Source: Bacteroidaceae bacterium (GTDB lineage Bacteria > Bacteroidota > Bacteroidia > Bacteroidales > Bacteroidaceae). From it: a DNA stretch of 52,414 bases. The notes below the pieces were generated by a model. The model had not been told where the DNA came from. It saw nothing but the letters and a program-made list of their open reading frames with translations, and ran no database searches. Shown piece by piece: positions 10,224 through 45,621 of this stretch (positions are counted from its first letter, which is position 1; each line of letters starts with the position of its first letter). Location: NCBI GenBank assembly GCA_017461345.1, contig JAFTYP010000006.1, positions 1-52,414 of the forward strand, in the 5' to 3' direction. A program made the translations under genes and the position numbers.

Positions 10224-10309
10224 GGAAAGGTTAAGCATTATGCCAATAATGCTTAACCTTTCCGGCCATAATGCTTAACCTTTTTGGTCATAATGGTTAA
10301 CCTTTTTTT
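10224..10309. repeat. 22-bp phased array A (four units)
   Basis: Cores at 10229-10236 (GGTTAAGC), 10251-10258 (GCTTAACC), 10273-10280 (GCTTAACC) and 10295-10302 (GGTTAACC), each exactly 22 bp apart. Units 1 and 2 are reverse complements over 16 bp (10224-10239 with 10248-10263), and the array ends in seven T. It starts 42 bp after the stop of the 7296 gene. No separate terminator is visible here, so the array may serve as one. Confidence 0.93.
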
Positions 10310-10403
10310 GTAGAGAGGCTGTGCCTTGTTTGTTAACTACTGCTTCAGGGCGTTTTTCTTCCCTTTTTCAATGGCAAAGTTTCATGGTTAGAAAAAATAA
10401 TTG

Positions 10404-10411
10404 TACCTTTG
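10404..10411 (+). promoter_or_regulatory. -7 box of the CotH gene
   Basis: TACCTTTG lies 23 bp before ATG 10435. It matches TAnnTTTG. Confidence 0.7.
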
Positions 10412-10434
10412 CAGACAAAATAATATGAACGTCG

Positions 10435-12627
10435 ATGCGTAAAAGGTTATTATTGTGTCTGTTTGCAATCTCCATGCTTTTCGGAGTGGTCTGTGCGGAG
10501 ACTCCGGAATTTGGCGTGCCCCATGGCATCTATAATGCAACCTTCCGCCTTTCCATAACCTCGCCGGTTCCCGGTGCAACCATCTATTTCACCGACGACG
10601 GCAGCGACCCTCGCCAGAATGGAATGCTTTACGACGGGGCGTTCAGCATCAGTCGCACTTCGGTCATTCGTTCGGCATATCTACATTCCGACACCGTCTG
10701 GAGCGACGTCAAGACAGCAACTTACATCTTCCCACAAAGCCTGCTGACGCAAGGCAACAGGCCCTACGGATACCCCACCTACTGGGGGAAGTACTGCGAA
10801 ATATCGGGAACAGCCATCGCCGACTACGAGATGGACCCCGAAATAACCGGCCACGAAACATATTCCGCCTATGTCACCGAAGGCATAACCACCCTGCCCA
10901 TCGTCTCCCTCGTTACCGACAAGGGCAACTTCTTCAATAACGTGGCAGACGAAAAGACGGGCGGCATCTACATCTTCACCGGCTGCCCCGTAGGCGACGG
11001 CACAGGAAGAGGGTGGGAGAGACCCGTCAGTTTCGAACTCATAGGCGGAGAAGAGAACCACGACCTCACAGTGGATTGCTGCATCAAACTGCACGGCGGA
11101 CACGGACGCCTGCCCGAAAAGAACCCGAAACACGCCTTCCGCCTCCACTTTAAAAGCGAGTACGGACCCAAGAAACTCAAGTACCCCGTCTTCGGAGACA
11201 GCGGACCGAAGAAGTTCAACGCACTCGTTCTTCGCACATTCTTCGGATATTCATGGCAACATTGGGACAGCAATCAGCGCAACAAGGCACAGTATACGCG
11301 CGATCTTTGGGCACGTGCCACACAAGCAAAGATGGGCGACCCCATCAGCAAGGCACAGTATGTCCATCTCTATCTCAATGGAATGTACTGGGGAATGTAT
11401 AACCTGTGCGAACGCGTAAACGACGATTTCTGCGCACAAAACTTTGGCGGCTCGGAAGAAGACTGGGACGTGACAGAAGTTGACGGCGGCGCCGGACAGT
11501 ATCATGCCGCAATACCCACATACGGCACCATCGACGCATGGAACGCCATGGCAGACCTCATCTACGACCTCCCCAACCATTCGAGTTATATGCACCTCAT
11601 CGGGTGCGGCTCCGACGGCAAGCCAAACGTAAAGTATCCACCTCTGCTCGACGTCGACAACTTCATCCACTACATGCTCATCAACCTCTACGGAGGCAAT
11701 ACCGACTGGGACCACCACAACTGGTACGCATACAGAAACCGCATCTGGGCAGACCAAGGCTTCCGCTTCATTTGCTGGGACACAGAAAACATCCTCGTCT
11801 CGCCCTCGGAAAACCTTACGAACAAAAACAACCGCGGCTGCCCAACAGGCTTCCTCAACCGTCTGATGAAACAAGGCATCTTCGCTCATCGTTTCCACGA
11901 AGAAGCACAACGTGCACTCACACACGGAGGCCCCCTGTCGCCCGAAACAGCAGAAGCCACATGGGACAGCCTAAGCAATGTTATACGACTGGCATTGTGG
12001 GACGAAGCCGCACGCTGGGGCGATTACCGTCGCGACATTCATCCCTACACCACAAAAGGCGCCCTCTACAAACCCGACGGAGCCTATGAAGCAGAACGCC
12101 TGCGTCTTCAAAAACAATACTTCCCCGTCCGTACAGACAACTTCATAAAGCAACTCCGCGAACGTGGCTGGTTCCCCTACACAGAAGCACCTGCCATCTA
12201 TGTCGACGACACCGAAATAGGATACGGAATCCACCCATTCTCTACACAAAGCACCCTCACCATGACGGGCACAGACATCTATTATACACTCGATGGCACA
12301 GCACCGGTCAACTGGTTCAAGAACGATGCCGGGGCAATTTCATCATCGGCAATACAATACACAGAAGGCGAAAACATACTCTCAAGGTTCAGCGGGTCAG
12401 TCATCCCCGACACCATTACATTGCGGGCCATCTGCAGAGAAAATGACGAATGGAGTCCCATAATGAGCGTAAAACTTGCAACCTACGACCCAGACTTTGT
12501 TTCCTTGCCAAAAGAGAACAAGCCCAAAATGGAAGGACTGTTTGACCTCCATGGCCGACGCATCACTGCTCGCGACCTGCGTCGAGGCATCTTCATCGTC
12601 AACGGAAAGAAGGTCCTTAAGAAATGA
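10435..12627 (+). CDS. Secreted CotH-family protein with chitobiase-like and type IX tail segments
   Basis: 730 residues with a signal peptide (LFGVVCAE). Residues ~30-100 and ~590-690 are chitobiase/FN3-like beta-sandwich segments (GATIYFTDDGSDPRQNG; TDIYYTLDGTAPVN). The central ~150-560 region is a CotH kinase-like domain: KLHGGHGRLPEKNPKHAFRL, YVHLYLNGMYWGMYNLCERV, IHYMLINLYGGNTDWDHHNW and FRFICWDTEN. Bacterial CotH proteins are protein kinases or structural surface proteins; activity here is unproven. The C-terminus FDLHGRRI...GIFIVNGKKV is the tail shared by three proteins in this window and resembles a type IX sorting signal. It overlaps the methyltransferase gene by four bases (ATGA), so the two are co-translated. 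Confidence 0.88.
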   Translation: MRKRLLLCLFAISMLFGVVCAETPEFGVPHGIYNATFRLSITSPVPGATIYFTDDGSDPRQNGMLYDGAFSISRTSVIRSAYLHSDTVWSDVKTATYIFPQSLLTQGNRPYGYPTYWGKYCEISGTAIADYEMDPEITGHETYSAYVTEGITTLPIVSLVTDKGNFFNNVADEKTGGIYIFTGCPVGDGTGRGWERPVSFELIGGEENHDLTVDCCIKLHGGHGRLPEKNPKHAFRLHFKSEYGPKKLKYPVFGDSGPKKFNALVLRTFFGYSWQHWDSNQRNKAQYTRDLWARATQAKMGDPISKAQYVHLYLNGMYWGMYNLCERVNDDFCAQNFGGSEEDWDVTEVDGGAGQYHAAIPTYGTIDAWNAMADLIYDLPNHSSYMHLIGCGSDGKPNVKYPPLLDVDNFIHYMLINLYGGNTDWDHHNWYAYRNRIWADQGFRFICWDTENILVSPSENLTNKNNRGCPTGFLNRLMKQGIFAHRFHEEAQRALTHGGPLSPETAEATWDSLSNVIRLALWDEAARWGDYRRDIHPYTTKGALYKPDGAYEAERLRLQKQYFPVRTDNFIKQLRERGWFPYTEAPAIYVDDTEIGYGIHPFSTQSTLTMTGTDIYYTLDGTAPVNWFKNDAGAISSSAIQYTEGENILSRFSGSVIPDTITLRAICRENDEWSPIMSVKLATYDPDFVSLPKENKPKMEGLFDLHGRRITARDLRRGIFIVNGKKVLKK

Positions 12628-13448
12628 ACTGCATAGAAATCACATCGCTTGAAGACCAAGGTCTGGAAGTTTACGGCACACTTACCGAAGCACAACTGCG
12701 CAATAAACTCGAACCCGAAAAAGGCATCTTCATAGCCGAAAGCCCAAAAGTCATCAATGTCGCACTCGATGCAGGCTTTGAACCAGTATCACTTCTTTGC
12801 GAACGCAAACATATCGATGGCGATGCCCGTAACATTATCGAACGATGTCCTGCCGAAATGCCTGTCTATACCGGTAGCCGTGAACTGTTGGCGCAGTTGA
12901 CAGGCTATACTCTGACACGCGGAGTGCTCTGTGCTATGCGTCGTCCCAAACCACTTTCGCCGGAAGAAATCTGCAAGGATGCACATCGAATCGTTGTCCT
13001 TCATGGCGTTGTCGACACAACCAATGTAGGTGCAATCTTCCGTTCGGCAGCAGCACTAGGAGTAGATGCAGTGCTGATGACACGCAACTCGTGCGACCCT
13101 CTGAACCGCAGGGCAGTTCGTGTCTCGATGGGCAGTGTGTTTCTTGTGCCCTGGACGTGGCTCGATGCAGAAGACGGAACAGCAGCCGGCACCATTCACA
13201 AACTGCAGGAAATAGGCTTTACTACTGCTGCAATGGCTTTAAGAAAGGATGATATCAGTATTGATTCCCCACGTCTGAAGGCAACGGAACGCTTGGCTCT
13301 AATCATGGGGACAGAGGGTGATGGCCTGCCCGATGCTGTTATCGATGCAGCAGACCTCGTTGTGAAAATTCCAATGCATCATGGAGTTGACAGCCTTAAT
13401 GTAGGAAATGCTGCTGCAATCGCTTTCTGGGAACTGAGAAAGCATTAG
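12624..13448 (+). CDS. SpoU/TrmH-family RNA 2'-O-methyltransferase
   Basis: 274 residues. An N-terminal substrate-binding part (~15-100, PEKGIFIAESPKVINVALDAG) precedes the SPOUT knot domain. All three family motifs are visible: VVDTTNVGAIFRSAAALG (motif 1), LALIMGTEGDGLPD (motif 2) and DSLNVGNAAAIAFWE (motif 3). It transfers a methyl group from S-adenosylmethionine to a ribose 2'-OH in tRNA or rRNA; the target base cannot be told from sequence. It is coupled to the CotH gene by a four-base overlap, an odd partner, and lacks its own promoter box. It ends seven bases from the convergent DUF4954 gene, with no room for a terminator. Confidence 0.93.
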   Translation: MNCIEITSLEDQGLEVYGTLTEAQLRNKLEPEKGIFIAESPKVINVALDAGFEPVSLLCERKHIDGDARNIIERCPAEMPVYTGSRELLAQLTGYTLTRGVLCAMRRPKPLSPEEICKDAHRIVVLHGVVDTTNVGAIFRSAAALGVDAVLMTRNSCDPLNRRAVRVSMGSVFLVPWTWLDAEDGTAAGTIHKLQEIGFTTAAMALRKDDISIDSPRLKATERLALIMGTEGDGLPDAVIDAADLVVKIPMHHGVDSLNVGNAAAIAFWELRKH

Positions 13449-13455
13449 CAGTCTT

Positions 13456-15246: not shown

Positions 15247-15281
15247 AACATTATCTTTTTCCCTTGTATGCTTTCAAATTG

Positions 15282-15289
15282 CAAATATA
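15282..15289 (-). promoter_or_regulatory. -7 box of the DUF4954 gene
   Basis: The minus strand reads TATATTTG, 36 bp before ATG 15246. Confidence 0.65.
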
Positions 15290-15333
15290 CGAAAAAAGGA
15301 CTTACTCTAAATGGTGTATTGTGAATTAATTTG

Positions 15334-15341
15334 TATCTTTG
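15334..15341 (+). promoter_or_regulatory. -7 box of queD-queE
   Basis: TATCTTTG lies 17 bp before ATG 15359. It argues for that start and against the upstream ATG at 15311, which would lie before the transcript. Confidence 0.7.
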
Positions 15342-15358
15342 CAAAAAGTTTTCACATT

Positions 15359-16251: not shown

Positions 16252-16386
16252 ACTGCTCGGTGTTATACAAATGACATCGGAAAGTGCCATTTCGGTTTCT
16301 TTTTGCTACTTCGATTTTTGTCTTGAAATAGAGTGAAATAGAAAAAGAAACGGCTCAAAAACTCATCCCATTGCAGTAGTTTTCAG

Positions 16387-16466
16387 ACTTGGCATGGGAT
16401 GTTGGAAAACTCGACAGGCGAAGTTTGCCGACATGGCACGTTAAGTCTGCCGAAAACCTTAACCCA
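16387..16466. repeat. 22-bp phased array E (different core)
   Basis: Units start with ACTTGGCA at 16387, ACTCGACA at 16409, ACATGGCA at 16431 and AAAACCTTAACC at 16453, exactly 22 bp apart, with TTTGCCG or TCTGCCG at the joints. The third unit contains GGCACGTTAAGT, whose complement ACTTAACGTGCC occurs in register in array D. It lies between convergent genes, 136 bp after the queE stop. Confidence 0.75.
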
Positions 16467-16487
16467 ATTTCCCTTCAAGGCATACGA

Positions 16488-20679: not shown

Positions 20680-20783
20680 CCTTAATCGTGTTCGGCAGAA
20701 TGGTTAAGCATTATTGCTGGAAAGGTTAACCTTTCCGGCCAAATAGGTTAACCTTTTTGGGGCAAAGGGTTAACCTGTTTTTG
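20680..20783. repeat. 22-bp phased array B (four units plus one degenerate)
   Basis: Cores at 20702-20709 (GGTTAAGC), 20724-20731, 20746-20753 and 20768-20775 (GGTTAACC), all 22 bp apart. A degenerate TTAA sits exactly one period earlier (20682-20685). The array begins 35 bp beyond the stop of the minus-strand GTPase gene. Its T-tract is on the strand antisense to both flanking genes, so it is not a simple terminator for them. Confidence 0.92.
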
Positions 20784-20817: not shown

Positions 20818-22023
20818 CTATTCTGCCAGACAGCCGTCGAGCAATGCGGCGATTGCCTTCTTGTCGAGGTTCTGCCCGATGAAGACAAGTTTCTGCATAC
20901 GGTCGCCGTAGCGGTCGTCCCAGTCGCGGCGGAGGTTTGCATCGCGCTGCTTCATGGCTTCCAGTTCTGCGGGCGGCATGGTGGCGTACCATTGCCCGAT
21001 GTTTTGCAACTTGACCTGTTTGCCTGCTTGCTCAAAGAGGTAGCAGAAATCTTCTTCGCCCCGGAAGTAGCATATGCCTTTGGCACGGATGATGTTTTTG
21101 GGCCAGAGTCGTGCCACAAACTGGTCGAACTCGCCCAGGTCCATTGGCTCGCGACGGTAATAGACGTAGGTGCCGATGCCGTATTCTTCGGCTTCTCCCT
21201 CGTGGTGGTCGTGGTCGTGATGATGATGGCAGTGGTGGTGGCAGTGCTCATCGTGATGGTGGTGTTCGTCGTCGTGCTCATCGTGATGGTGATGGCCCTC
21301 CAGTTCTTCTATCCAGGTGGCAGATGTGGCAACATCCTTGTAGTCGAAGAGGTCGGTGTTCAGCAACCTGTCGAGTTCCACATCGCCATAGTTGCAGGGA
21401 ATAATCTGTGCCTTTGGCTGCAATCCGCGTATGATTTGGCGTATGCGTCCCAGTTCGTTTGCCTCCACATCGTCGGCCTTGTTGAGCAGAATGATGTTGC
21501 AGAATTCAATCTGCTGAATGACAAGATTCTCGATGTCCTCTTCGCCGATATTCTTTTTCGTAAGGCCGCTGCCGCAATCGAACTCGTCCTTCAGGCGCAG
21601 AGCGTCAACCACGGTGACAATACAGTCCACATAAGGCACCCCGTACTTCGTTACCTCCGGCGCCATGTCTGCCATGGAACAAATCGTCTGCGCTATGGGC
21701 TCCGGCTCACAAATGCCACTGGCTTCGATGACAATGTAGTCGAACTTCTGCATCGCCATGATGTCTCGCAGCTGTTCCACCAGGTCCATCTTCAGCGTAC
21801 AGCAGATGCAACCGTTCTGCAAGGCAATCAGACTGTCGTCCTCTCCACCGACGATGCCACCCTTCTGGATGAGTTCGGCGTCGATGTTCACCTCGCCAAT
21901 GTCATTCACAATAACAGCAAAACGAATGCCACGACGGTTCGAAAGAATACGGTTCAAAAGTGTTGTCTTTCCACTACCCAGATAACCGGTGAGCAACAGC
22001 ACAGGAATATGATATCTTGTCAT
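20818..22023 (-). CDS. CobW/COG0523-family GTPase (probable metal chaperone)
   Basis: 401 residues. Walker A GYLGSGKTT at ~13-21, the family signature GCICC at ~71-75 (CxCC metal site), IEASGICEP as the switch/Walker B region, and NKAD for guanine recognition. A histidine/aspartate-rich loop (~245-277) with more than a dozen histidines is a likely zinc-binding store. The C-terminal CobW_C domain follows (~280-395, IIRAKGICYFRGEED). These GTPases deliver zinc, cobalt or other metals to client enzymes. The partner is unknown, and no zinc-uptake genes are adjacent. It has its own promoter box at 22053-22060 (minus). Confidence 0.92.
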   Translation of the reverse strand: MTRYHIPVLLLTGYLGSGKTTLLNRILSNRRGIRFAVIVNDIGEVNIDAELIQKGGIVGGEDDSLIALQNGCICCTLKMDLVEQLRDIMAMQKFDYIVIEASGICEPEPIAQTICSMADMAPEVTKYGVPYVDCIVTVVDALRLKDEFDCGSGLTKKNIGEEDIENLVIQQIEFCNIILLNKADDVEANELGRIRQIIRGLQPKAQIIPCNYGDVELDRLLNTDLFDYKDVATSATWIEELEGHHHHDEHDDEHHHHDEHCHHHCHHHHDHDHHEGEAEEYGIGTYVYYRREPMDLGEFDQFVARLWPKNIIRAKGICYFRGEEDFCYLFEQAGKQVKLQNIGQWYATMPPAELEAMKQRDANLRRDWDDRYGDRMQKLVFIGQNLDKKAIAALLDGCLAE

Positions 22024-22228: not shown

Positions 22229-25200
22229 ATGAACAAAATCAAGTTATTCTTCCTGTTCGCTGCCATGCTTGTGGCAACAACACTGCAAGCACAAAACCCC
22301 GACTACTTTGTGCCTTACAAGCAGATAGCACTCCGCATGCCCAGTGTTCCCCTGCTTGTCAACGACCCCTACTTCTCCTTCTGGTCGCCCTACAACAACC
22401 TCAACGACGGAACCACCAAGCATTGGGGCGACCGCCAGAAGGCAATGGACGGCCTCCTGCGAGTAGATGGCCAAGTCTATCGCTTTATGGGTTCTACACG
22501 ATCCACAAAACTTCTCTCCATCGCACCCATGGGAAACAAGGGCGGCTATACAGCAAAAGTACGCACCTCTATGCCCTCCTCGCTCATAGACACATGGATG
22601 AACCTCGACATCTCCGAGTCCGGATGGGCAAATCAAACAGGCCCATGGGGCACAAAAGGCGAATATCCCAACATACAAACATCATGGGACGGTGGCAACA
22701 CCGACCGCTATATCCGCCGACACGTTAACCTCACAGCCGAAGACCTTAAGTGCGACCTCTGGATTGTCTATTCTCACGACGACATATGCGAGGCCTACAT
22801 CAACGGCGTGAAGATAATCGAAACAAAAGAAGAATGGCGTCAGAATGTCAAAGTCCACTTGACGGGAGCAGCACGCGAAGCACTCGTCGAAGGAGATAAC
22901 GTCATTGCATTCCACGTTCACAACACCTCGGGCGGTGCCTTGGCAGACATAGGTCTCTACAAGAACGACCTTGGATTCCATCCGGGCTATCGTGCTATTG
23001 CAGGAATGGCAGACGAAGGTCCATGGGAAGCTAAGGTGAAGAAGGTCGCAATGAGTGGCACAACCTGGACACAGGAAGACTATAACGACGAAAGTTGGGA
23101 AACAGAAATGGGCGCATTCGGTACGAAAGGCGAGTATCCCAACGTCAATACGAACTGGACAGCAACAGGCAGTGACTATTACATCCGTCGCTATATTACC
23201 CTTACGGCAGAGGATTTGAAGAAAGAACTTGCTCTCATCTATTCTCACGACGATGTTTGTCAGGCTTATATCAACGGCCGTCGCGTGGTTAGTGTTGGCA
23301 ATTCTTGGCATCAGAATGTTGTTTATGACCTTACGGCCGACGACAAGGCGGTGCTCCACGAAGGCACAAACGTCATTGCTTTCCATGTTCATAACACGAC
23401 GGGCGGTGCCTTGGCAGACATTGGCCTTTACGAAAACATCAGGAATGAAGCGAAGGCTGTCCAGAAGTCTGTTGACGTTTTGGCAACAAACACGTTCTAT
23501 ACGTTCCAGTGTGGCGGTGTTGATTTGGATGTTGTCTTCACTGCTCCGTTCCTTATGGACGACGTTGAGTTGATGTCCACTCCGGTGAATTACATCTCTT
23601 ATCAGGTTCGTTCTAATGATGGGGAAGAGCATGATGTGCAGTTCTACTTTGGTACTACTCCGGAATTGACGGTTGACAACAACAGCCAGGCTACTGTTTC
23701 TTCCATTGTTAATGTTGGTGGTCGTTCTTACATCAAGAGCGGAAGCCGGGACCAGAAGGTTCTAGGCCGTGCGGGCGACAATATTTCCATCGATTGGGGC
23801 TACCTCTATTTGCCCAATGTGAACGGCTCTATCTCTGTGGCCGACCAGGATCTTACGACTACTACTTTTGCCTCGACGGGTGCTTTGCCTGAGAGTTCTG
23901 TGCCGTTTACGAGTTCGGAGGAGGGCGAGATGCCGCAACTTTCTTATGTTCACGACTTCGGCAAGGTGTCGCAGGCCAGCAGTTATATGATGTTTGGCTA
24001 TGATGAGGTTTACGATATGCGTTACATGGATGTCAACTACAAGGGCTATTGGGCGCGTAACGGCAAGACTATTTTCCAGGCGTTTGCCGAGTTCCAGGAG
24101 AATTATGACGACATTATGGTGCGTTGTCAGGAGCAGGATCGCATTATTTATGACGATGGTTTGGCAGCCGGCAACAGCAAGTATGCCGAGGTTCTTTGTG
24201 CTTCTTACCGTCAGTGTATTGCCGCGCATAAGATTTTCGAGGACAACAAGGGCAATCTTCTCTTCTTCTCTAAGGAGAATAACTCTAATGGTTGTGTCAA
24301 TACGGTTGACCTTACTTATCCTTCTGCTCCGCTGTTCTTGCTTTACAATACGGAGTTGATGAAGGGTATGTGTACTTCTATTTTCGATTATTGCGAGAGC
24401 AGTCGTTGGGGTTTCGACTTCGCTGCTCATGATTTGGGTACTTATCCTCATGCCAACAATCAGGTTTATGCTCAGCGTTTCCCGGGTTCTAATGGTGAGT
24501 TCGGTGGCAATATGCCTATCGAGGAGAGTGCCAATATGGTCATCTTGGCTGCGGCCATTTCCATTTCCGATGGCAATGCCGACTGGGCCGGCCGTTATTG
24601 GAAGACGCTCACTACGTGGACGGAGTATCTTGCCGAGAATGGTACCGACCCGGAGAACCAACTTTGTACCGACGACTTTGCCGGACACTTGGCTCACAAT
24701 GCCAACCTTGCCGTGAAGGCTATTATGGGTGTGGCTGCTTATGCCCAACTCTGTTTCATGCGTGGCGATGTGGATGGCTACAATTCTTATATGGCTAAGG
24801 CGAAGCAGATGGCCACCGATTGGGCAAAACTTGCCAAGGATGGCACTCACTACAAACTGGCCTATGACCGCAGTGGCACCTGGAGCCAGAAGTACAACAT
24901 GGTTTGGGACAAGGCTTGGGGCACTAATCTCTTCCCCGAGACTATAAAGAGACAGGAGTATAACTACTACATGACCAAACTGAATACTTATGGTCTGCCC
25001 CTTGACAGCCGTGCTACGTATACCAAGAGTGACTGGGAATATTGGACAGCATCGTTGGCTTCCAGCAATACCAACTTCCTCAAGATTTCCAACCTCCTCT
25101 GGAAGTATGCCAACGAGACTCCGAGCCGTGTGCCTTTCTCCGACTGGTATTCTACCGACGGCAATGGCAGCTGGGTAAGTTTCCGTGCACGAAGCGTTGT

Positions 25201-25402
25201 GGGTGGCCACTGGATGAAGGTCTATATGGACAAGATTCTCAGTGGAGAGATTGGCACTGCCATCGCTCCTATCCGTGCCGACGAGGTCGGCAACAAGGCG
25301 TCGAAGTACATCAACGGCTGGTATAATCTCAGCGGCCAGAAGATAGACGAACCCGTTCAGCGCGGCATATACATCAAGGATGGCAAGACTATCGTAAAAT
25401 AA
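22229..25402 (+). CDS. Glutaminase-like DUF4964/DUF5127/DUF4965/DUF1793 protein with duplicated domain and type IX-like tail
   Basis: 1057 residues with a signal peptide (AMLVATTLQAQ). The N-terminus (VPLLVNDPYFSFWSPYNNLN...MDGLLRVDGQVYRFMG) matches DUF4964. Residues ~115-255 and ~270-410 are two copies of one beta-sandwich domain (shared SHDD, AYINGR/V and NVIAFHVHNT). DUF5127 follows (~420-640), then the alpha-helical DUF4965/DUF1793 region (~640-1020, FLLYNTELMKGMCTSIFDY, DLGTYPHANNQVY). Family members are called glutaminase A-like or putative glycosidases; the substrate is unknown. The tail YNLSGQKI...GIYIKDGKTIVK is shared with two other proteins here. Codon choice changes from C/A-ending to T/G-ending near 23250, inside the second repeat. 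Confidence 0.85.
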   Translation: MNKIKLFFLFAAMLVATTLQAQNPDYFVPYKQIALRMPSVPLLVNDPYFSFWSPYNNLNDGTTKHWGDRQKAMDGLLRVDGQVYRFMGSTRSTKLLSIAPMGNKGGYTAKVRTSMPSSLIDTWMNLDISESGWANQTGPWGTKGEYPNIQTSWDGGNTDRYIRRHVNLTAEDLKCDLWIVYSHDDICEAYINGVKIIETKEEWRQNVKVHLTGAAREALVEGDNVIAFHVHNTSGGALADIGLYKNDLGFHPGYRAIAGMADEGPWEAKVKKVAMSGTTWTQEDYNDESWETEMGAFGTKGEYPNVNTNWTATGSDYYIRRYITLTAEDLKKELALIYSHDDVCQAYINGRRVVSVGNSWHQNVVYDLTADDKAVLHEGTNVIAFHVHNTTGGALADIGLYENIRNEAKAVQKSVDVLATNTFYTFQCGGVDLDVVFTAPFLMDDVELMSTPVNYISYQVRSNDGEEHDVQFYFGTTPELTVDNNSQATVSSIVNVGGRSYIKSGSRDQKVLGRAGDNISIDWGYLYLPNVNGSISVADQDLTTTTFASTGALPESSVPFTSSEEGEMPQLSYVHDFGKVSQASSYMMFGYDEVYDMRYMDVNYKGYWARNGKTIFQAFAEFQENYDDIMVRCQEQDRIIYDDGLAAGNSKYAEVLCASYRQCIAAHKIFEDNKGNLLFFSKENNSNGCVNTVDLTYPSAPLFLLYNTELMKGMCTSIFDYCESSRWGFDFAAHDLGTYPHANNQVYAQRFPGSNGEFGGNMPIEESANMVILAAAISISDGNADWAGRYWKTLTTWTEYLAENGTDPENQLCTDDFAGHLAHNANLAVKAIMGVAAYAQLCFMRGDVDGYNSYMAKAKQMATDWAKLAKDGTHYKLAYDRSGTWSQKYNMVWDKAWGTNLFPETIKRQEYNYYMTKLNTYGLPLDSRATYTKSDWEYWTASLASSNTNFLKISNLLWKYANETPSRVPFSDWYSTDGNGSWVSFRARSVVGGHWMKVYMDKILSGEIGTAIAPIRADEVGNKASKYINGWYNLSGQKIDEPVQRGIYIKDGKTIVK

Positions 25403-25488
25403 TGGTTAACCTATTTTGCAATAATGCTTAACCATTCCGGCCATAATGGTTAACCTAATCGACCAAAAGGGTTAACCTTTCCGGCAAG
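25401..25488. repeat. 22-bp phased array C (four units), overlapping a stop codon
   Basis: Cores at 25404-25411 (GGTTAACC), 25426-25433 (GCTTAACC), 25448-25455 and 25470-25477 (GGTTAACC), all 22 bp apart. The first unit shares two bases with the stop codon of the 22229 gene, and the last runs into the stem of the following terminator. Confidence 0.93.
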
Positions 25489-29917: not shown

Positions 29918-30019
29918 CATCTACTGTCGAGTTTGCCAAATAGGTGTACCTAATTGCCCGACTTAACGTGCCTTGTTGGCAATAATGGTTAACCTTTTTT
30001 GCCGACTTGGCAGTAGATG
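29918..30019. repeat. 22-bp phased array D with inverted flanks
   Basis: Core centres fall 22 bp apart: GGTGTACC (29943-29950), a unit with ACTTAACGTGCC (29961-29972), and GGTTAACC (29987-29994). The array is bounded by CATCTACTG (29918-29926) and its exact complement CAGTAGATG (30011-30019), with imperfect complementarity continuing inward (CGAGTTTGCCAAA against TTTTGCCGACTTGG). It lies between convergent genes. Confidence 0.82.
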
Positions 30020-33479: not shown

Positions 33480-33522
33480 TCTTTTCGTGTTATGTTGTCT
33501 GATGTCGCGTTAGTGTCTCTTT

Positions 33523-33588
33523 GAATGGTCATGATGCAACGATTGAATGGTCATGATGCAACGATTGAATGGTCATGACCATTTAATC
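33523..33588. repeat. 22-bp phased array H (core GGTCATGA)
   Basis: Three units start at 33523, 33545 and 33567. The first two are identical; the third diverges after GAATGGTCATGACC, where it forms the palindrome AATGGTCATGACCATT. The last unit overlaps the stop codon of the 33587-38125 gene by two bases. Confidence 0.85.
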
Positions 33589-36500
33589 ATCTTACCACTT
33601 TACGTCCGTTCATTATGTATATGCCTTGCATTGGTTTTCCATAGATGCGTCGGCCACTCAAGTCGTAGATTCCTGTCTTTTCCTGTTGTTTGTTTGTAAG
33701 TATATTGCCGATTCCGTCGGGGTCTTCATTGATGTATGTCCCCTCGTAGTACCAGACAGGCAGATGACGGTTGTCGGGCACGGGATGATAATCCTCGTTG
33801 AGCGTCTGGAACCAGGCTTGTTTTTCGCCCGTCCTGCCGGCATTGAGCAGGTAGCATAACTCGCCGCTTCTTGCACTTTGCTGGTCGGCACTCTTGGCAT
33901 CGTAGGGGATCTCTGCTCCCCAATCGCTGATATAATATGTGTCTTGGAGTATGGCTCGGCTGTTGTTGCGGCAGATGACGTCGCCACCATCCGAACTGAT
34001 GTTCATGTCGCCCATCATCAGACAATTCGAGATGAAACCCGTTGCCGTTGCCCATCCCACAAGACCGCCACAACTGTTGACGTTGCTGCCTTCAATCGAA
34101 CCGGCAAAGATGCAGTCCTGCAACTGAGTGATGTTGGAAGCCTCACTGATGAGACCTGTCAGGCCGCCATGTGTGCCGTCGCCGGAAATCGTGGCGATGA
34201 TGTCGATGTAACTTTGGCAACGGAGCAATGTGCCGCCAAACATTTCGCTGACCATGCCGGCATACTTGCTGTTTGTGCTAATCGTTCCGCGCACAATGAG
34301 GTCCTTCACCGTTCCGGACAAATGCCCGAATAGACCGGCATAGTCGGCTTCGCGAACCAAGGCAATGGTGATGGTGTGCCCGGCTCCGTCGAATGTTCCG
34401 CTGTAAGTCTTGCTGTTGCCTATCATCGTGGCAGGATAACCGGTGAAATCAATATCGTCGCCCAGCACACCGCAGATGCCTGTCTGGCCTTGTTCCACCA
34501 GTTGGGCAAAACTGTTCAGTGCTTCGGCCGAAGCAATAATGTAGTATCCGCGTTCGTCTTTCGGCATACTATTCATGTTCACATAACCGCAGACCTGACA
34601 TGTTCCGTGCTGGAATGTATGTTCGTCCTGCTTGTTGAGCGAGGCATTATTGGTATAGCCGTCGATTGAGGAGTATGGCGTTCCGTCGCAATGCAGGCGG
34701 GAGAAACAATACACAACATTGTGCGTAGTGTCCGGCACGGGCGTAGTGTCCGAGCCAAGCGTTTGTCTCCATGCGGTTGTTCCGGGTTGCTTGTTCTCGA
34801 GTAGGAAACATGCCTCACCATAGATCACCTGGTTTTCTGTCAGCGAAGAGACATCCCCGCAGTCGTTTGCAGCACCCCAATTTCCATAGAAGAAATTGTT
34901 GTGCGAAGTGACATTGCCGCTGTTGCGCGACAAGATGTCGCTGCCTTGTGTGCTGACTGTAAAGTTACTTGTGATAAGGCAGTTGGAGATGCTTGTGCTT
35001 CCACTTGCCCAACCTGATACGCCAGCACAACATTCGGTCTGGCTTCCCTGTATCGAACCACTGATAAGGCACTCCCGAACAACAGTGCCGGCATTAGAGA
35101 TACCCACAATGCCGCCGTGTGTTCCATCGCCCCCAATAGAACTGATAATGTTCACTCGGCTTTGGCAACGCTCAATAGTTGCATTCTCCGTCTGTCCGGC
35201 AATACCGCCTGCATACTTCGCTGAGGTCGTGATGTTGCCGGTTATGGTTAGGTCGTGTATGTAACCAGACAGGTTGCAGAACAAAGCAGCAAAGTCTGCC
35301 GTACGTCTCATGTCAAGTTTGATAGTGTGACCGGCACCATCGAACTCACCTTTATAGTTTGCCCCCGTACCTATCATGACATCCGGATAGGCCGTAAAGT
35401 CAATGTCGTTTTTCAGCACGGCACACAAGGAAATGCTTCCTGTGTTGACCTGCTGTGCGAAGTCTGCCAAGTCTTCAGCCGTAGCAATCTCAATGATTCT
35501 CTTATCTTCCCCCGCACCACTGTTGTTGATAAGGCGGTCGAGGAATTCAATTCTGTTTCCGATGAATTCCTTTAACCAGCCTACCTCGACCTCATACGAA
35601 CCGCCGGCTCGAGGATTAACCTGTACAAGTTGGTCCAATATGGGCCAGCGTATGAAATTAAGGCGCTGTGATTGCATGAGTTCTTGTGCTGTCGAATCGA
35701 TGTATGCTACGAGGCTTTCTGCCGTAATGCCTTGCTTCTCTCGGGCGGTGTTCCACATCGTTGTCATTGAATCGCAAAGCACTTGGTCGGTAAACAGCCT
35801 TTTGACTAAAGCCCTGAAGTTACCTGCTCCGCCATAAGTGAGCGAGAGGAAATTGTCTATATTGCAGGTGGGGAAGTAGCGATGGTCGTTGTCAAAAGCA
35901 ATATCAAAGTCCCATACAGGCCCTACACGAAACAGGTCTTCATTCCGCTCCTTAGTCATATAACAACTCCAGAACGCATCCGGATTGCTGGCAAGTTCTT
36001 CTGTTAAAAAGTATTTGAGGAAACTCTTTTCGTCAAGTCTTGAACGGAAACCCAATTCGGGGTCGGCAAAGTTGGAAGATAGGATTTTGGCTTCCATGAG
36101 ATTGAACTCGCGGCGTATGTATTGAGCTTGTTCCGTTGTTATGTCATCCTCGTTGGGGAACTTGATGGTTATAGGGTTTCCTGCGGCACTGCTAAACCAC
36201 GATACCTCTTGATCTGCATAGCCGTCAAGTTCGAGCAGATAACCTCCCGTCAGTGCTTCGCCTTCGATGTCGGTCGGTTCCATTTCGGTAATGCTGATAC
36301 GATTTTTGTCTAAAGTCAACTGATCGGTCAGTTGATAGCAGCCACGATATTCGCCATTGACGATAACATCTACAGGCTTGCTCCAAGGCACATAGTCGAA
36401 TCCCATGCGACGTGCAATCTCGTAGGCTACGAGATTACGCATCAAAGTTTTGTCGCTGTAGTTGTTGATGAGCGTCCATTTCTTTGCTTTTGCCTTAGAA

Positions 36501-38125
36501 CGCATATCGGAGCCCTTGAACAGCCGCGACGAAGTATCCAATTTTATTCGATAAGGTTTCTTGGGATGTGCCAGCGAAGCATTGCCACGAAGCCGTGTTG
36601 TGCCCGATTCCTCCTGAATTTTTGTTCCATTATCATATATAAATGTAATGGAAGAGACTATGTCGTCAACCTTATTATAAGGGTCGATGTTGTCTTGAGT
36701 ACGAAAGGAGACGGTTGGAAGGTTCGTCAGTTGGTAAAATATACTGTCGTTTCCAATACCTGCATGACCATAGAACTCTACTTCAGCCACATTGCATCGT
36801 GCATCCGAAGGGCCAACATATCGAACATAACGAAAGCCTCTTGAGACATTGACGTCTGCGTAACTTCTCTCACCAATCGTTCCTTCTTTGTCTATGATGT
36901 ATAGGGGAACGGCATCCATAAAGTTTGGATCGTTTGCACCTTCAAAGAGTGCAAGTAGAACGCGCTTCGGTCCGTACCCATCATTGCGTGGCGACCAGCC
37001 AACACGTGTAATGATATGTGGTTCTCCGAGGTCAAGGCCTACCCATGTTTTGCTTCGTTCGTATGATGCAAAGAATGTGGATAGATTGCCATCGAATGCG
37101 TTTGCAGCAGTATTTACCGTTGTGCTGGATTGCCCGGTGGAATAGTCAACACTTTGCTTTGTGCCAATTATAGTTCCGTAAAGGAGTTGGTCTTGTGCAT
37201 TTGCTTTTAGGGTAAAACATTGTATCAGGGCAAATAGTATCAGCGATAGAGCAGTGTTGCTCTTGGTGTGTGTGCTTTCAGTTTCTTGCTTTAGTCCGCA
37301 GAAAGAGCAAAAATGGTCTTCCTCTGAGAGTGGCGAACCACATTCTGCACAGGTTTTCTTCTTGTTTTTGGGCTTGTGATCATGTACCATTTGTGCACTG
37401 ACGATGCCCGTTGGGACAGCCAAGATGGTATAACCCATGAGCATTATTATAGCGCTGAGTATTCGCCCAGGTAATGTTATGGGTGCAATGTCGCCATATC
37501 CTACGGTTGACATCGTAACGATGGCCCAGTATATGCTTGTTGGTATGTCGGTGAATGGCGTGTTGGGAATGTTTCCTTCTACAATATACATGAGTGTTCC
37601 CATGCTGATAACCATGATAAGCATGAAGAGGAAGAATACGGCTATCTTGGGTGCGCTGAAGATAATGGAACGCATGAGGATGTCGCCTTCTTTTAGGAAA
37701 CTGAAGAGTTTGAATACGCGAAATACACGAATAAGGCGGAATGTACGTGCAATCATCAAATAGCGTGCGGGCCCGAAGAACCAGCCTATGTAGAGCGGTA
37801 GTGTGCTTAAGAGGTCAATAATGCCAAAGAAACTCAGGGCATACTTGCGGGGATTTTCGGAACAATAGAGTCTGCACAGGTATTCTATGGTGAAGAAGAA
37901 AGTGAGAATGTATTCGAGGATGGTGAATGCCAACTTGGCTTTTGGCGGGAGAGCCTGCATGCTTTCTATGACGACGAGCAATATGCTTATTACTATGCAC
38001 CACAACAACGCTACATCGAAGGCTTTTCCCAGTGGTGTGTCGCTTTGGAAAATTATGATACGCAACTTCTTTCGAAGTTCGTTATTATCCATTGCTTTCT
38101 GCCATAAGCGTTGTATGGTATTCAT
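33587..38125 (-). CDS. Fusion: voltage-gated-type K+ channel + zinc ribbon + secreted discoidin/CotH/GLUG protein
   Basis: 1512 residues in one frame. Residues 1-250 are a six-helix channel: S4 with regularly spaced arginines (RTFRLIRVFRVF, ~127-138) and the selectivity filter TVGYGD (207-212). Residues 259-277 are a zinc ribbon (CAEC...CSFC), the usual end of this channel type. The next stretch, KSNTALSLILFALIQCFTLK plus ANA (~288-310), is a perfect signal peptide with no Met. Then come a discoidin-like domain (~315-455), a CotH domain (~470-860), two GLUG-repeat regions (~900-1080, ~1210-1400) and the type IX-like tail IYDLSGRRI...GIYIMNGRKVV. No ATG precedes the second part, so the fusion is real in this sequence. 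Six bp behind it lies nagA, upstream in transcription order. Confidence 0.85.
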   Translation of the reverse strand: MNTIQRLWQKAMDNNELRKKLRIIIFQSDTPLGKAFDVALLWCIVISILLVVIESMQALPPKAKLAFTILEYILTFFFTIEYLCRLYCSENPRKYALSFFGIIDLLSTLPLYIGWFFGPARYLMIARTFRLIRVFRVFKLFSFLKEGDILMRSIIFSAPKIAVFFLFMLIMVISMGTLMYIVEGNIPNTPFTDIPTSIYWAIVTMSTVGYGDIAPITLPGRILSAIIMLMGYTILAVPTGIVSAQMVHDHKPKNKKKTCAECGSPLSEEDHFCSFCGLKQETESTHTKSNTALSLILFALIQCFTLKANAQDQLLYGTIIGTKQSVDYSTGQSSTTVNTAANAFDGNLSTFFASYERSKTWVGLDLGEPHIITRVGWSPRNDGYGPKRVLLALFEGANDPNFMDAVPLYIIDKEGTIGERSYADVNVSRGFRYVRYVGPSDARCNVAEVEFYGHAGIGNDSIFYQLTNLPTVSFRTQDNIDPYNKVDDIVSSITFIYDNGTKIQEESGTTRLRGNASLAHPKKPYRIKLDTSSRLFKGSDMRSKAKAKKWTLINNYSDKTLMRNLVAYEIARRMGFDYVPWSKPVDVIVNGEYRGCYQLTDQLTLDKNRISITEMEPTDIEGEALTGGYLLELDGYADQEVSWFSSAAGNPITIKFPNEDDITTEQAQYIRREFNLMEAKILSSNFADPELGFRSRLDEKSFLKYFLTEELASNPDAFWSCYMTKERNEDLFRVGPVWDFDIAFDNDHRYFPTCNIDNFLSLTYGGAGNFRALVKRLFTDQVLCDSMTTMWNTAREKQGITAESLVAYIDSTAQELMQSQRLNFIRWPILDQLVQVNPRAGGSYEVEVGWLKEFIGNRIEFLDRLINNSGAGEDKRIIEIATAEDLADFAQQVNTGSISLCAVLKNDIDFTAYPDVMIGTGANYKGEFDGAGHTIKLDMRRTADFAALFCNLSGYIHDLTITGNITTSAKYAGGIAGQTENATIERCQSRVNIISSIGGDGTHGGIVGISNAGTVVRECLISGSIQGSQTECCAGVSGWASGSTSISNCLITSNFTVSTQGSDILSRNSGNVTSHNNFFYGNWGAANDCGDVSSLTENQVIYGEACFLLENKQPGTTAWRQTLGSDTTPVPDTTHNVVYCFSRLHCDGTPYSSIDGYTNNASLNKQDEHTFQHGTCQVCGYVNMNSMPKDERGYYIIASAEALNSFAQLVEQGQTGICGVLGDDIDFTGYPATMIGNSKTYSGTFDGAGHTITIALVREADYAGLFGHLSGTVKDLIVRGTISTNSKYAGMVSEMFGGTLLRCQSYIDIIATISGDGTHGGLTGLISEASNITQLQDCIFAGSIEGSNVNSCGGLVGWATATGFISNCLMMGDMNISSDGGDVICRNNSRAILQDTYYISDWGAEIPYDAKSADQQSARSGELCYLLNAGRTGEKQAWFQTLNEDYHPVPDNRHLPVWYYEGTYINEDPDGIGNILTNKQQEKTGIYDLSGRRIYGKPMQGIYIMNGRKVVR

Positions 38126-39295: not shown

Positions 39296-39352
39296 GGTAT
39301 GTGTGTTGTTAGTTTGTTGTCTGCGTGTGTGGATGGATTGTTTGGAGTGTGA

Positions 39353-40738: not shown

Positions 40739-40785
40739 GTCTGATATGTTTTTCTGTGTTTTTTGTTTCCGTTGTTGTCTTCTGT

Positions 40786-40872
40786 CAGATAGGTTAACCA
40801 TTATTGTCAAATAGGTTAACCATTATCGTCGGAAAGGTTAAGCATTATGGCAAGAATGGTTAACCTTTTTTG
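40786..40872. repeat. 22-bp phased array F (four units)
   Basis: Cores at 40792-40799 and 40814-40821 (GGTTAACC), 40836-40843 (GGTTAAGC) and 40858-40865 (GGTTAACC), all 22 bp apart. It ends with six T. Both flanking genes run on the minus strand; the array lies 29 bp past the GH43 stop and 47 bp upstream of glmM. Confidence 0.93.
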
Positions 40873-40901
40873 TGCATGGGTTCAGGGGGCGTCCCGACGC
40901 C

Positions 40902-41876
40902 TTACTGGGGCTTGCCGCCTTCCACGTATGGCCAGCCCTCTTTGTCCCATTTAATTTGGGCGATGAAGAAGGGGCGGCTGTTGCGGTTGCGACTGCCTTC
41001 CACGTGGCAATGGTAGAAGATGTATTCCTTTTTGTCTTTCCCTTTGAATATCTCGCCGCAGTGTCCGGGGCCATAGAAACGGTCGCCCTTGTCGCTGTGC
41101 AGTACGGTGGTGGCGTATCCCTCCTTCATGGGGCGGCCTTCTCTGTCGACGAAAGTGCCGGTCAGTTTCTTGGCTCTGCCCACCTGGAGTTTGTAAGTGT
41201 GGTCAGAATAAAAGCCGGAACTGACGAAGAGGTACCAGTATTTGCCGTGCTTGTGCAGGTAGGCTCCCTCGAACACCTTGGAGCGACCGGGGTTCTGCTC
41301 AACCTTCAAGCCTGCCACATGCTCGTATTTTGCACCCTCCTTCAGGGAGAGTCCGTCCTTGTTCAACTCGATGCGATGTATGCCCCCCACAGAACCGAAG
41401 AAGAGCCACACTTTGCCCGTCTTGGGGTCGGTAACCACTTCCGGGTCGATGGTATCGTGGATGCCCGTCTCTTTGCCGCTGGTCACAATGCCTGCATAGC
41501 GGAACTGGCCCAGAGCAACCTCCTGCAATACGCCGATATTGCTGTCCTCTGCACTATTGTAAAGCGAGATATAGAGATTCCTCTTGCCGCCCTTGAGGGT
41601 AGCCACATCAGGAGCCCAGAAGTGTTTGCTTACGGCTCTCATCTTCTCCCACGAAGCCTCGTCTATAGGTGCCACATCGCTCATGCTCCAATTGAAAAGG
41701 TCGTCGCTGACAATAGAACGCCTCGGATTGGTGGCAACACAATGGTAACGCCCGTCCTCGCCCAACCATACAGTAGGATCCGGCCAGTCGCGAGGCCATA
41801 CAGGGTTCGTAAACTCTTGTGCTAAAGCGAAGCTCGAATGAATCAAAGCCAGTACAAATAAAAGAAAGTAACGCAT
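40902..41876 (-). CDS. Secreted GH43-family glycosidase
   Basis: 324 residues from ATG 41876 (MRYFLLFVLALIHSSFALAQ), which gives a clean signal peptide just inside a promoter box at 41911-41918; a longer frame starts far upstream of it. GH43 residues: WPDPTVWLGEDGRYH (base Asp), DTIDPEVVTDPKTGKVWLFF (modulating Asp) and KVFEGAYLHKHGKYWYLFVS (acid Glu). The FWAPDVATLKGGKRNLYIS segment is also typical. Likely an arabinosidase, xylosidase or arabinanase in the periplasm. It is transcribed away from the GH31 gene, sharing a 206-bp control region. Confidence 0.92.
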   Translation of the reverse strand: MRYFLLFVLALIHSSFALAQEFTNPVWPRDWPDPTVWLGEDGRYHCVATNPRRSIVSDDLFNWSMSDVAPIDEASWEKMRAVSKHFWAPDVATLKGGKRNLYISLYNSAEDSNIGVLQEVALGQFRYAGIVTSGKETGIHDTIDPEVVTDPKTGKVWLFFGSVGGIHRIELNKDGLSLKEGAKYEHVAGLKVEQNPGRSKVFEGAYLHKHGKYWYLFVSSGFYSDHTYKLQVGRAKKLTGTFVDREGRPMKEGYATTVLHSDKGDRFYGPGHCGEIFKGKDKKEYIFYHCHVEGSRNRNSRPFFIAQIKWDKEGWPYVEGGKPQ

Positions 41877-41910
41877 AAACCTATAATCTTCCAAGTGTAT
41901 ATTTGATGCA

Positions 41911-41918
41911 CAAAGGTA
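41911..41918 (-). promoter_or_regulatory. -7 box of the GH43 gene
   Basis: The minus strand reads TACCTTTG, 35 bp before ATG 41876. Confidence 0.65.
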
Positions 41919-42033
41919 AGAGTTTTCCCCGAAATCTACAAACAAAGACACCGAAAAAGAGTGAGCCAAACCCCATCCCAGTACGAAAAATGTATTTAAA
42001 TGCTTTTTTTTTGCGGACAAAAAGAAAAAATAA

Positions 42034-42041
42034 TATCTTTG
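42034..42041 (+). promoter_or_regulatory. -7 box of the GH31 operon
   Basis: TATCTTTG lies 42 bp before ATG 42083. Confidence 0.65.
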
Positions 42042-42082
42042 CAAGCAAAATACCATTAGAAACAAAGATTAAACCATTATCT

Positions 42083-44431: not shown

Positions 44432-44493
44432 TATGATGGTACGATAAGCAGTATTTGACATAAATATCAATAGAATATAGTTATAAGATAGAT

Positions 44494-45513
44494 ATGAAGC
44501 ATCGAATTCTCCTTTTAATACTCTTGGTCCTTGCACCTTGTTCTCTGCAGATTCTGCAGGCCCAGTCACGCCTTTATATACGTGGTTCTGCTGTGCCCGG
44601 CGGTGTTCAGCAGCTGACACGCTTCTCTACGAGCACTACGGGCAAGTACTCATTCAAGTTCCATGGCCGGCTGCTTCCGGGCAATCTCTACATTACAACG
44701 ACCGATTCGCCCAAGGCCACTTCGCGTTACTATGCGCCCAAGTTGGTGGATACCAATATTGTTAATGAGGGAACGGCTTATTCCTCCAAGACAGACAGCC
44801 TGGGCGCAGAGTGGGCAGTCTTGATAGGTGCAGACAATTATCGTTTTACTGTTGATGTTACGAACAAGCAAGTGACTGGAGAACTCTTCAATCGTTGGTA
44901 CGAAGCCTGGATATGTGGCGGTTGCGTGGAGGACGAACAGGGCAAGAACATTGAGGGGCAGAATGGCCATTGGCAGATAACAGCCGGCAAGCAGATGGAG
45001 CAAAGCTGGGATGACCCCAATGTGTTCGAGTGGACAGGCCTGCTTAAGGCTTATAGCTACAATCAGGAACCCAAGCGATTCAAAATAAATGGTCAGTACG
45101 GTTGGAGCCCGAAAGTGTTGCATCCCTTTACGCAGGATGCCTCTATACTGACTGCCAAGCAAGTGTGGTATAATGGTTCGCAGGACTACAAGTGGTCCAT
45201 TGTCAGGGATGGCTATTATCGTATTAAGATAAATGTCTTTCTGGAAACCATCGAAGCGGAATACCTCGGCACGGAATTGCCCGATGGAATCCTTCTGACG
45301 CCTGAGGTGGAGACCGACATCAAGGTCAGTGGCCGCCAGATAGCATTGCAATCGAAGGAGGCTTTGACCGTCAAACTTTACTCAACCGACGGCAGCCTGC
45401 GCGATACAGCCTACGGCACAGATGTCACTCTGACCGCACCCACTGCAGGCATATATGTGCTCACTGCCAGCAATGGTCATCAAGGCATCACAAGAAAGAT
45501 AATCGTCCGCTGA
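44494..45513 (+). CDS. SusE/SusF-like outer-surface protein with type IX C-terminal domain
   Basis: 339 residues with a signal peptide (LAPCSLQILQAQ). Two SusE/F-type starch-binding-like sandwiches are suggested: ~22-130 (LYIRGSAVPGG, YSFKFHGRLLPGNLYIT) and ~130-255 (WYEAWICGGCVEDE, VFEWTGLLKAYSY). The last ~75 residues form a sorting domain (VKLYSTDGSLRDT...AGIYVLTASNGHQGITRKIIV), the classic type IX pattern. Family members bind starch at the surface. Only 62 bp follow the GH31 stop, with no terminator, so the two genes probably form an operon. SusC and SusD partners are missing. Confidence 0.8.
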   Translation: MKHRILLLILLVLAPCSLQILQAQSRLYIRGSAVPGGVQQLTRFSTSTTGKYSFKFHGRLLPGNLYITTTDSPKATSRYYAPKLVDTNIVNEGTAYSSKTDSLGAEWAVLIGADNYRFTVDVTNKQVTGELFNRWYEAWICGGCVEDEQGKNIEGQNGHWQITAGKQMEQSWDDPNVFEWTGLLKAYSYNQEPKRFKINGQYGWSPKVLHPFTQDASILTAKQVWYNGSQDYKWSIVRDGYYRIKINVFLETIEAEYLGTELPDGILLTPEVETDIKVSGRQIALQSKEALTVKLYSTDGSLRDTAYGTDVTLTAPTAGIYVLTASNGHQGITRKIIVR

Positions 45514-45535
45514 TAAAGCAAGGCAGAGCATGCCG

Positions 45536-45621
45536 AAAAAAGGTTAACCTATTTGCCTGAATAGGTTAACCTTTCTGTTTATAATGGTTAACCTAATTTG
45601 CAATAATGGTTAACCTTTATT
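45536..45621. repeat. 22-bp phased array G (four units)
   Basis: Perfect GGTTAACC cores at 45542-45549, 45564-45571, 45586-45593 and 45608-45615, all 22 bp apart; the spacers differ. It lies between convergent genes, 22 bp after the SusE/F-like stop, where I see no other terminator. Confidence 0.95.

What the first reader, a model, noticed from the sequence alone, without database searches (positions are those of the whole stretch)
10224..45621. A dispersed family of 22-bp-phased palindromic arrays at gene 3' ends
Seen directly: arrays at 10224-10309, 20680-20783, 25401-25488, 40786-40872 and 45536-45621 each hold four cores of GGTTAACC, GGTTAAGC or GCTTAACC. Within each array the cores are exactly 22 bp apart (20 core positions checked by counting), while the bases between cores vary. 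Each array begins 0-45 bp beyond a stop codon of a flanking gene, and none lies in a divergent promoter region. The fixed period with free spacer sequence means the register is what is conserved. Twenty-two bp is about two helical turns, so all cores face one side of the DNA. Possible roles (inference): a cooperative binding platform for a nucleoid or termination protein, a 3'-end RNA structure, or a self-amplifying repeat. I know of no described family that fits.
Basis: partly seen in the sequence, partly recalled or inferred. Interest (0 to 1): 0.9.

Follow-up and report, generated by a model that had tools for sequence, protein, structure and literature searches.

The report
22-bp palindrome arrays at gene ends
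In a group of uncultured gut bacteria of ruminants, many genes end in short DNA arrays whose palindromic words sit exactly 22 base pairs apart; the words differ from species to species but the spacing does not, which hints at an undescribed way of marking the ends of genes.

Summary
In 302 kb of the 2.07-Mb genome I found 29 arrays, 18 with exactly four strict cores. The genome has 317 core pairs at 22 bp and none for the reversed control.

Arrays lie between genes, a median of about 42 bp from flanking gene 3' ends. In a sister genome (93% identical) all 13 comparable loci carry the array: TTAA changed at 0 of 200 positions, the spacer centre at 57 of 296. So the core is under selection. Spacers are not free: AAW/WTT flank each core, and halves are combined so that hairpins are weaker than in swapped controls.

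The family is one case of a larger class. At three gene ends, 22-bp repeats of many different cores occur in 31 of 88 loci; each other period from 14 to 40 in at most one. At convergent gene ends arrays partly replace ordinary terminators.

Best reading, not proven: double-stranded DNA sites for sequence-specific proteins, acting as boundary or terminator elements. A selfish extragenic repeat is the main rival. No binding protein was identified.

The parts
10229..10302 (.). Array 1: cores GGTTAAGC, GCTTAACC, GCTTAACC, GGTTAACC at 22 bp; 47 bp past the stop of the + gene 7296-10181, co-directional gap
20702..20775 (.). Array 2: GGTTAAGC then 3 x GGTTAACC; 42 bp past the stop of the cobW-like - gene 20818-22023, co-directional gap
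25404..25477 (.). Array 3: GGTTAACC, GCTTAACC, GGTTAACC, GGTTAACC; 1 bp after the stop of the + gene 22229-25402, convergent gap; an ordinary terminator hairpin follows
29943..29994 (.).
40792..40865 (.). Array 4: GGTTAACC, GGTTAACC, GGTTAAGC, GGTTAACC; 36 bp past the stop of the - gene 40902-42065, co-directional gap
45542..45615 (.). Array 5: 4 x GGTTAACC; 28 bp past the stop of the + gene 44494-45513, convergent gap
539..598 (.). 22-bp array of another core family (TACATGTA)
   Evidence: a similar core in G026 and G091
33521..33578 (.). 22-bp array of another core family (AATGGTCATGA)
   Evidence: a similar core in G087

Best explanation
The arrays are double-stranded DNA operator arrays. 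Each holds about four dyad sites (AAWGGTTAACCWTT here), two helical turns apart, so that a sequence-specific DNA-binding protein can load side by side on one face of the helix. They sit just past gene 3' ends and act as direction-independent boundary elements that stop or insulate transcription by a protein roadblock, taking over part of the work of hairpin terminators. Within the genus the core word, and presumably the binding protein, changes while the 22-bp phase and the gene-end position persist. Shown: the phase, the gene-end position, selection on the cores, folding weaker than in swapped controls, shortage of ordinary terminators at convergent ends with arrays, and different cores at the same gene end in different species. 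Inferred: the protein, loading on one face, and the roadblock.
For: Core constraint between two genomes: TTAA 0/200 and the whole core 5/400 substitutions, AA/TT positions beside it 1/148, spacer centre 57/296, 40-bp flanks 127/1008 (13 loci). Exact phase. Inside no gene (0 of 49), median about 42 bp from flanking 3' ends; nearer the 3' end in 12 of 13 co-directional gaps of G000. Both ends of an array are T-rich outward whatever the direction of transcription (distal against proximal p=0.93). Convergent gene ends with an array have an ordinary terminator outside it in 4 of 19 cases, against 24 of 31 without (p=0.0001). RNA folding is weaker than in all 100 module-swapped sets (17 arrays), so a hairpin is not what is conserved. 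Phase and place outlive the core sequence: 31 of 88 loci.
Against: No binding protein was identified and no binding or termination was measured. Different cores in different species would need several co-evolving proteins. At co-directional gene ends the terminator shortage is not significant (2 of 14 against 12 of 48). Seven of 48 classified arrays lie in divergent gaps, and occupancy of convergent plus co-directional against divergent gaps in G000 is not significant (p=0.12). Masking the array leaves less sequence in which to find a terminator (median 129 against 210 bp). With the array left in, 10 of 18 convergent and 3 of 14 co-directional ends scored a terminator-like hairpin in the first scan, and outward flanks of arrays have somewhat stronger hairpins than shuffled flanks (11.4 against 9.3).
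Confidence: 0.4

Rival explanations
1. A selfish or by-product extragenic repeat: 22-bp palindromic units multiply by tandem duplication and dispersal, and persist near gene 3' ends because insertions are tolerated there. It would work like REP/BIME elements or a minisatellite and have no host function.
For: One family reached about 135 arrays here (estimate from 317 pairs) and is rare elsewhere: 5 of 139 genomes of the genus, own included, none of 294 other genomes sampled in the order. Two relatives differ in unit number at the cobW-like gene end (G087 three units, G084 one, by eye) and at the second gene end (G087 an array, G084 none by the criterion). Neighbouring units in one array resemble each other more than random ones. 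Nearby arrays share whole stretches (L027:12937 and 16039).
Against: All 13 comparable loci are occupied in the sister genome, with cores held constant and spacers diverged, which dead copies would not show. No shared terminal sequence was seen in the flanks (by eye). No Y1 (RAYT-type) transposase was found in the three genomes richest in this core, which are 73-86% complete. No exact hit of the triple pattern in viral contigs.
Confidence: 0.35
2. RNA-level 3'-end elements: neighbouring cores pair in the transcript as hairpins followed by U-rich stretches, giving bidirectional intrinsic terminators or transcript stabilisers.
For: Outward T-runs at both ends; shortage of other terminators at convergent ends; some arrays score as terminator-like hairpins; some cores in other species, such as CCTATAGG, look able to pair strongly (not folded).
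Against: Facing halves are less complementary than random pairings in G000 and G049 and across cores in G033 (p=0.006; across spacers p=0.26 there). Folding energy is -30.3 against -36.0 +/- 1.3 for module swaps, with the other strand alike, and the same holds in 19 G049 arrays. Halves of a core vary independently. Arrays of other cores were not tested for folding.
Confidence: 0.15
3. A recognition signal for DNA itself (uptake, segregation or nucleoid organisation) placed at gene ends only because space is free there.
For: Many dispersed copies, one dominant word in this genome, two-strand symmetry.
Against: Different words at the same gene end in different species and several families within one genome do not suit a single species-wide signal. 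GGTTAACC is not depleted in coding sequence (1 found, 1.0 expected).
Confidence: 0.1

Closest known systems
REP/BIME elements with RAYT transposases (recalled, plus abstract openings in the listings)
   Same: Short palindromic extragenic repeats, often clustered, near gene 3' ends, many copies per genome, imperfect symmetry.
   Different: No Y1 transposase found in G000, G049 or G033; phase locked at 22 bp; core of 8-14 bp; usually four units per array; no common GTAG or CGTC tag.
BrickBuilt MITE of Porphyromonas gingivalis (PMC4596501, passages seen)
   Same: Bacteroidales (recalled), intergenic, head-to-tail short units of similar length (23 nt). The same paper mentions 22-nt tandem direct repeats in strain W83 without locations.
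   Different: BrickBuilt has leader and tail subunits with small inverted-repeat ends, units without spacers, and 19 copies. Here the flanks share no sequence by eye and only the core is constant.
Plasmid iterons (recalled)
   Same: Repeats near 22 bp, about two helical turns, that load a protein on one face of the DNA.
   Different: Dispersed at about a hundred gene ends rather than at one origin; palindromic rather than directional cores.
Intrinsic terminators (recalled)
   Same: Position after stop codons and T-rich ends.
   Different: Folding is weaker than in swapped controls rather than selected.

Membership tests
REP/BIME with RAYT | Y1 (RAYT-type) transposase in the same genome | tested here: not met
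   PF01797 in 0 of the 3 genomes richest in GGTTAACC arrays (73-86% complete), in 5 of 14 genomes examined in the genus; one of these five, G036, holds a single GGTTAACC pair
REP/BIME with RAYT | 20-40 bp palindrome with a GTAG or CGTC tag (title and abstract opening of PMC3733652; rest recalled) | tested here: not met
   GTAG (either strand) in the body of 3 of 49 arrays, CGTC in 11 of 49; no common tag
REP/BIME with RAYT | extragenic, near gene 3' ends | tested here: met
BrickBuilt MITE | 23-nt units, leader and tail with inverted ends | tested here: not met
   period 22; outward flanks of 86 ends show no shared leader or tail (by eye)
MITE or other transposon | presence/absence between close relatives with target-site duplication | tested here: inconclusive
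   13 of 13 comparable loci occupied in both G000 and G049; no empty site seen; target duplications not searched
Intrinsic terminator | hairpin maintained by selection | tested here: not met
   pairing and folding weaker than in swapped controls (G000, G049; G033 in part)
Intrinsic terminator | ends transcription of the upstream gene | not testable with these tools
   no transcript data; indirect: shortage of other terminators at convergent ends
CRISPR array | acquired unrelated spacers of about 30 bp (recalled) | tested here: not met
   spacers are 14 bp, built from a limited set of half-words, and differ mostly by substitutions at orthologous loci
CRISPR array | cas genes nearby | not tested
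   no search for cas genes was made
Plasmid iterons | clustered at one replication origin next to an initiator gene | tested here: not met
   dispersed at many gene ends; initiator genes were not searched

The most novel reading that the evidence does not exclude
A genus-wide system of gene-end boundary elements in which dedicated DNA-binding proteins fill 22-bp-phased operator arrays and stop transcription from both sides without RNA hairpins. The words are rewritten as species diverge, while the two-helical-turn phase and the place at gene ends stay.
Probability: 0.3. Interest if true: 0.92.

Novelty: new variant of a known kind. Interest (0 to 1): 0.77.

Why it matters
If the arrays stop or insulate transcription through bound protein, bacteria would have a genome-wide, hairpin-free way to end genes. 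A fixed phase with changing words would also be a test bed for co-evolution of DNA-binding proteins and their sites. If they are selfish instead, they are an unusual repeat that keeps its phase and core under selection while its word differs between species. Either way, annotation of gene ends and terminators in this group is incomplete.

Tried and rejected
RNA hairpin as the conserved feature: rejected for G000 and G049, with weaker support in G033 (across cores p=0.006, across spacers p=0.26). Not tested on arrays of other cores.

Within-core compensation (dimer symmetry restored by paired changes): none seen.

T-runs as a mark of transcription direction: not so, both ends alike.

Dyad symmetry as special to period 22: not so. 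24 of 42 period-22 arrays outside G000, 22 of 32 in G000, and 19 of 38 arrays of all other periods pass p<0.05. In one search I noted two dyads 11 bp apart in each family; this follows from circular arithmetic and is not evidence. The 14 arrays were hand-picked.

First terminator scan (loops up to 9) gave 1 of 18 against 23 of 32 at convergent ends. It missed the long-loop terminator after array 3 and is replaced.

Avoidance of GGTTAACC in genes: 1 found in 357 kb of coding sequence, 1.0 expected. Rejected.

A third gene end was meant as a control without an array. It turned out to hold a degenerate array in G000, and 12 of 30 loci there carry 22-bp repeats, so there is no true negative control among the gene ends. 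The first and third gene lie in the window, the second in L029; the first two were chosen because they carry an array in G000.

Shared leader or tail sequence, Rfam on the window (only a tRNA), viral contigs (0), RAYT and literature gave nothing that explains the arrays. Outside the genus period-22 arrays are rare in the stretches read: 1 in about 60 kb intergenic (same family, 4 genomes) and 1 in about 70 kb (same order, 12 stretches from 11 genomes, one too short and skipped).
Full report
Handles: G000 is the window's own genome (2,074,583 bases, 32 contigs, 72.75% complete). The sample of G000 is the window plus L017-L029, 302 kb of 2,075 kb, picked around listed hits, so densities are not unbiased.

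OBSERVATION. Twenty of the 21 G[GC]TTAA[GC]C matches in the window lie in the five arrays at exact 22-bp steps. The genome has 317 SSTTAASS pairs at 22 bp and no match for the reversed control. Of 51 array entries in the window and L017-L036, 35 span exactly four positions, 7 two, 6 three and 3 five; one array with a 23-bp step was counted there as two entries (L024). Counting strict cores only, with that array joined, 18 of 29 G000 arrays have exactly four. Several shorter ones have degenerate cores such as GGTGTACC or GGTTAGCC in register (by eye). From 68 strict pairs in the 29 sampled arrays and 317 pairs in the genome, about 135 arrays are expected; this is an estimate.

ANATOMY. Each unit reads AAWGGTTAACCWTT plus about eight variable bases. 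The 11-bp halves come from a limited set of words. The two halves of a core vary independently. Halves that face each other across a spacer or a core are less complementary than random pairings in G000 (p about 0.001 and 0.004) and G049 (about 0.003 and 0.0005), mainly at two positions; G000 and G049 share ancestry, so these are not independent. In G033, with other spacer words, the across-core test gives p=0.006 and the across-spacer test p=0.26 (7 arrays). Folding of 17 four-core G000 arrays gives a mean of -30.3 kcal/mol against -36.0 (SD 1.3) for sets with half-modules swapped between arrays. All 100 swapped sets were more stable, and the other strand behaved the same way. The result repeats in 19 G049 arrays (60 sets) and, in G000, under swaps of whole core units or whole spacer units.

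SELECTION. Of 29 G000 arrays, 13 were aligned to syntenic DNA in the G049 stretches I had; one more with only one matched flank was left out and 15 had no counterpart in those stretches. All 13 loci hold an array in G049. Twelve keep their cores in register; at L028:16673 a length difference affects one core. Substitutions: TTAA 0/200, core 5/400, the AA and TT positions 1/148, spacer centre 57/296, 40-bp flanks 127/1008. The spacer centre changes faster than the flanks. The one 20-kb piece compared directly is 93% identical.

PLACE. With my own hexamer gene caller (starts are approximate and tend to be late, which lengthens 5' distances), 49 arrays in the G000 and G049 samples fall inside no gene: 15 convergent, 26 co-directional, 7 divergent, 1 at a stretch end. 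The median distance to flanking gene 3' ends is 41.5 bp (56 distances) and to flanking 5' ends 168.5 bp (40 distances). In G000 alone arrays occupy 9 of 18 convergent, 13 of 42 co-directional and 4 of 24 divergent gaps of 120 bp or more; convergent against divergent p=0.04, convergent plus co-directional against divergent p=0.12. In co-directional gaps the array is nearer the 3' end in 12 of 13 (p=0.003). T-runs at both outer ends exceed those of inner spacers and do not depend on direction. Ordinary hairpin terminators outside the array: convergent ends 4 of 19 with an array against 24 of 31 without (score 22, p=0.0001; at score 18, 6 of 19 against 24 of 31, p=0.0025); co-directional ends 2 of 14 against 12 of 48, not significant. 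Outward flanks of 86 array ends have somewhat stronger hairpins than shuffled flanks (11.4 against 9.3).

A WIDER CLASS. Stretches of other genomes of the genus hold 22-bp arrays of other cores, such as CTCGAG, CATATG, CTTAAG, ACATGT and CCTTAGG. I ran four settings of a scan for palindromic triples over periods 14-40; period 22 against all others together gave 25 to 3, 28 to 11, 1 to 7 and 42 to 6. The 1-to-7 setting used 11-base windows; in the last, 27 of the 42 come from G000 and G049. A scan blind to symmetry, outside G000 and G049, finds 42 intergenic triple repeats at period 22 and 1 within genes, against 15 intergenic at period 21 and at most 5 at any other from 16 to 40. Three gene ends were then read across the genus, taking the 30 best loci of each search (113, 125 and 121 of 139 genomes had a match). 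The criterion was 20 of 30 bases matching at one lag within 200 bp of the stop. CobW-like gene: 8 of 29 loci; second gene: 11 of 29; third gene: 12 of 30; one locus without a clear frame and one with a short downstream end were dropped. That is 31 of 88, or 27 of 82 without G000 and G049; each other period from 14 to 40 appears in at most one locus. The weakest cases (20-22 of 30) may be two-unit repeats. Cores differ between species at the same gene end: GGTTAACC, TACATGTA, GGTCATGA, CACGTG, CCTATAGG, ACTAGT and others. In the relatives I compared by eye (G057, G093 and G053; G087 and G084) the third gene end carries nearly the same array, while G087 and G084 differ in unit number at the CobW-like gene. 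GGTTAACC itself is in 5 of 139 genomes of the genus, own included: 112, 105 and 17 pairs in G000, G049 and G033 and one pair each in two others. It is in none of 294 other genomes sampled in the order. A triple pattern also hits single loci in a Tannerella sp., a Prevotellaceae and a Chitinophagaceae MAG, the last with eight strict cores and at least two degenerate ones in register between convergent frames.

READING. Constancy of the core across loci, weak hairpins, two-strand symmetry and the gene-end position fit sites for a DNA-binding protein better than an RNA element. The shortage of ordinary terminators at convergent ends suggests that arrays do some of their work. Both steps to mechanism, a protein and a roadblock, are inference. 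The selfish-repeat reading remains close behind, because one family has spread to many loci and cores differ between species.

LITERATURE. Full-text searches in the held library listed nothing that I recognised as describing such arrays; long result lists were capped at 15-20 rows (for example 27,354 papers and 302). I saw passages of PMC4596501 and PMC5771137 and one passage of PMC12306157; PMC3733652 was seen only in a search listing. Most subscription journals are absent, so this is not proof of novelty.

Noticed in passing
window 539-598: Small 22-bp array with TACATGTA cores, a core also seen in other species of the genus.
   Followed up: partly
window 33521-33578: 22-bp array with GGTCATGA cores between two - strand genes.
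   Followed up: partly
window 2716-2798: 22-bp repeats with ACTTCTCGTGTGAA cores inside an open reading frame (2395-3114, -) next to a sigma-70-family (region 2 and 4) gene, an exception to the intergenic rule.
   Followed up: partly
window 2198-2304: Five perfect copies of a 21-bp unit inside open reading frame 704-2371 (-), which would be a seven-residue protein repeat.
   Followed up: no
window 33587-38125 (-): One 1512-aa frame with ion-channel, F5/8 type C and CotH kinase domains, an unusual combination.
   Followed up: no
L129 6491-6696: A Chitinophagaceae MAG, from outside the Bacteroidales, has a long 22-bp array of GGTTAACC cores, eight strict and two degenerate, between convergent frames.
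   Followed up: partly
L031 5120 and L032 10012, outward flanks: Next to some arrays, degenerate outer cores (GGTACACC/GGTGTACC, GGCATACC/GGTATGCC) look able to pair as hairpins (by eye).
   Followed up: no
genomes of the genus, e.g. L048, L051, L052: Separate tandem repeats with periods 14, 21, 28 and 35 (7-bp units) recur in the genus.
   Followed up: no
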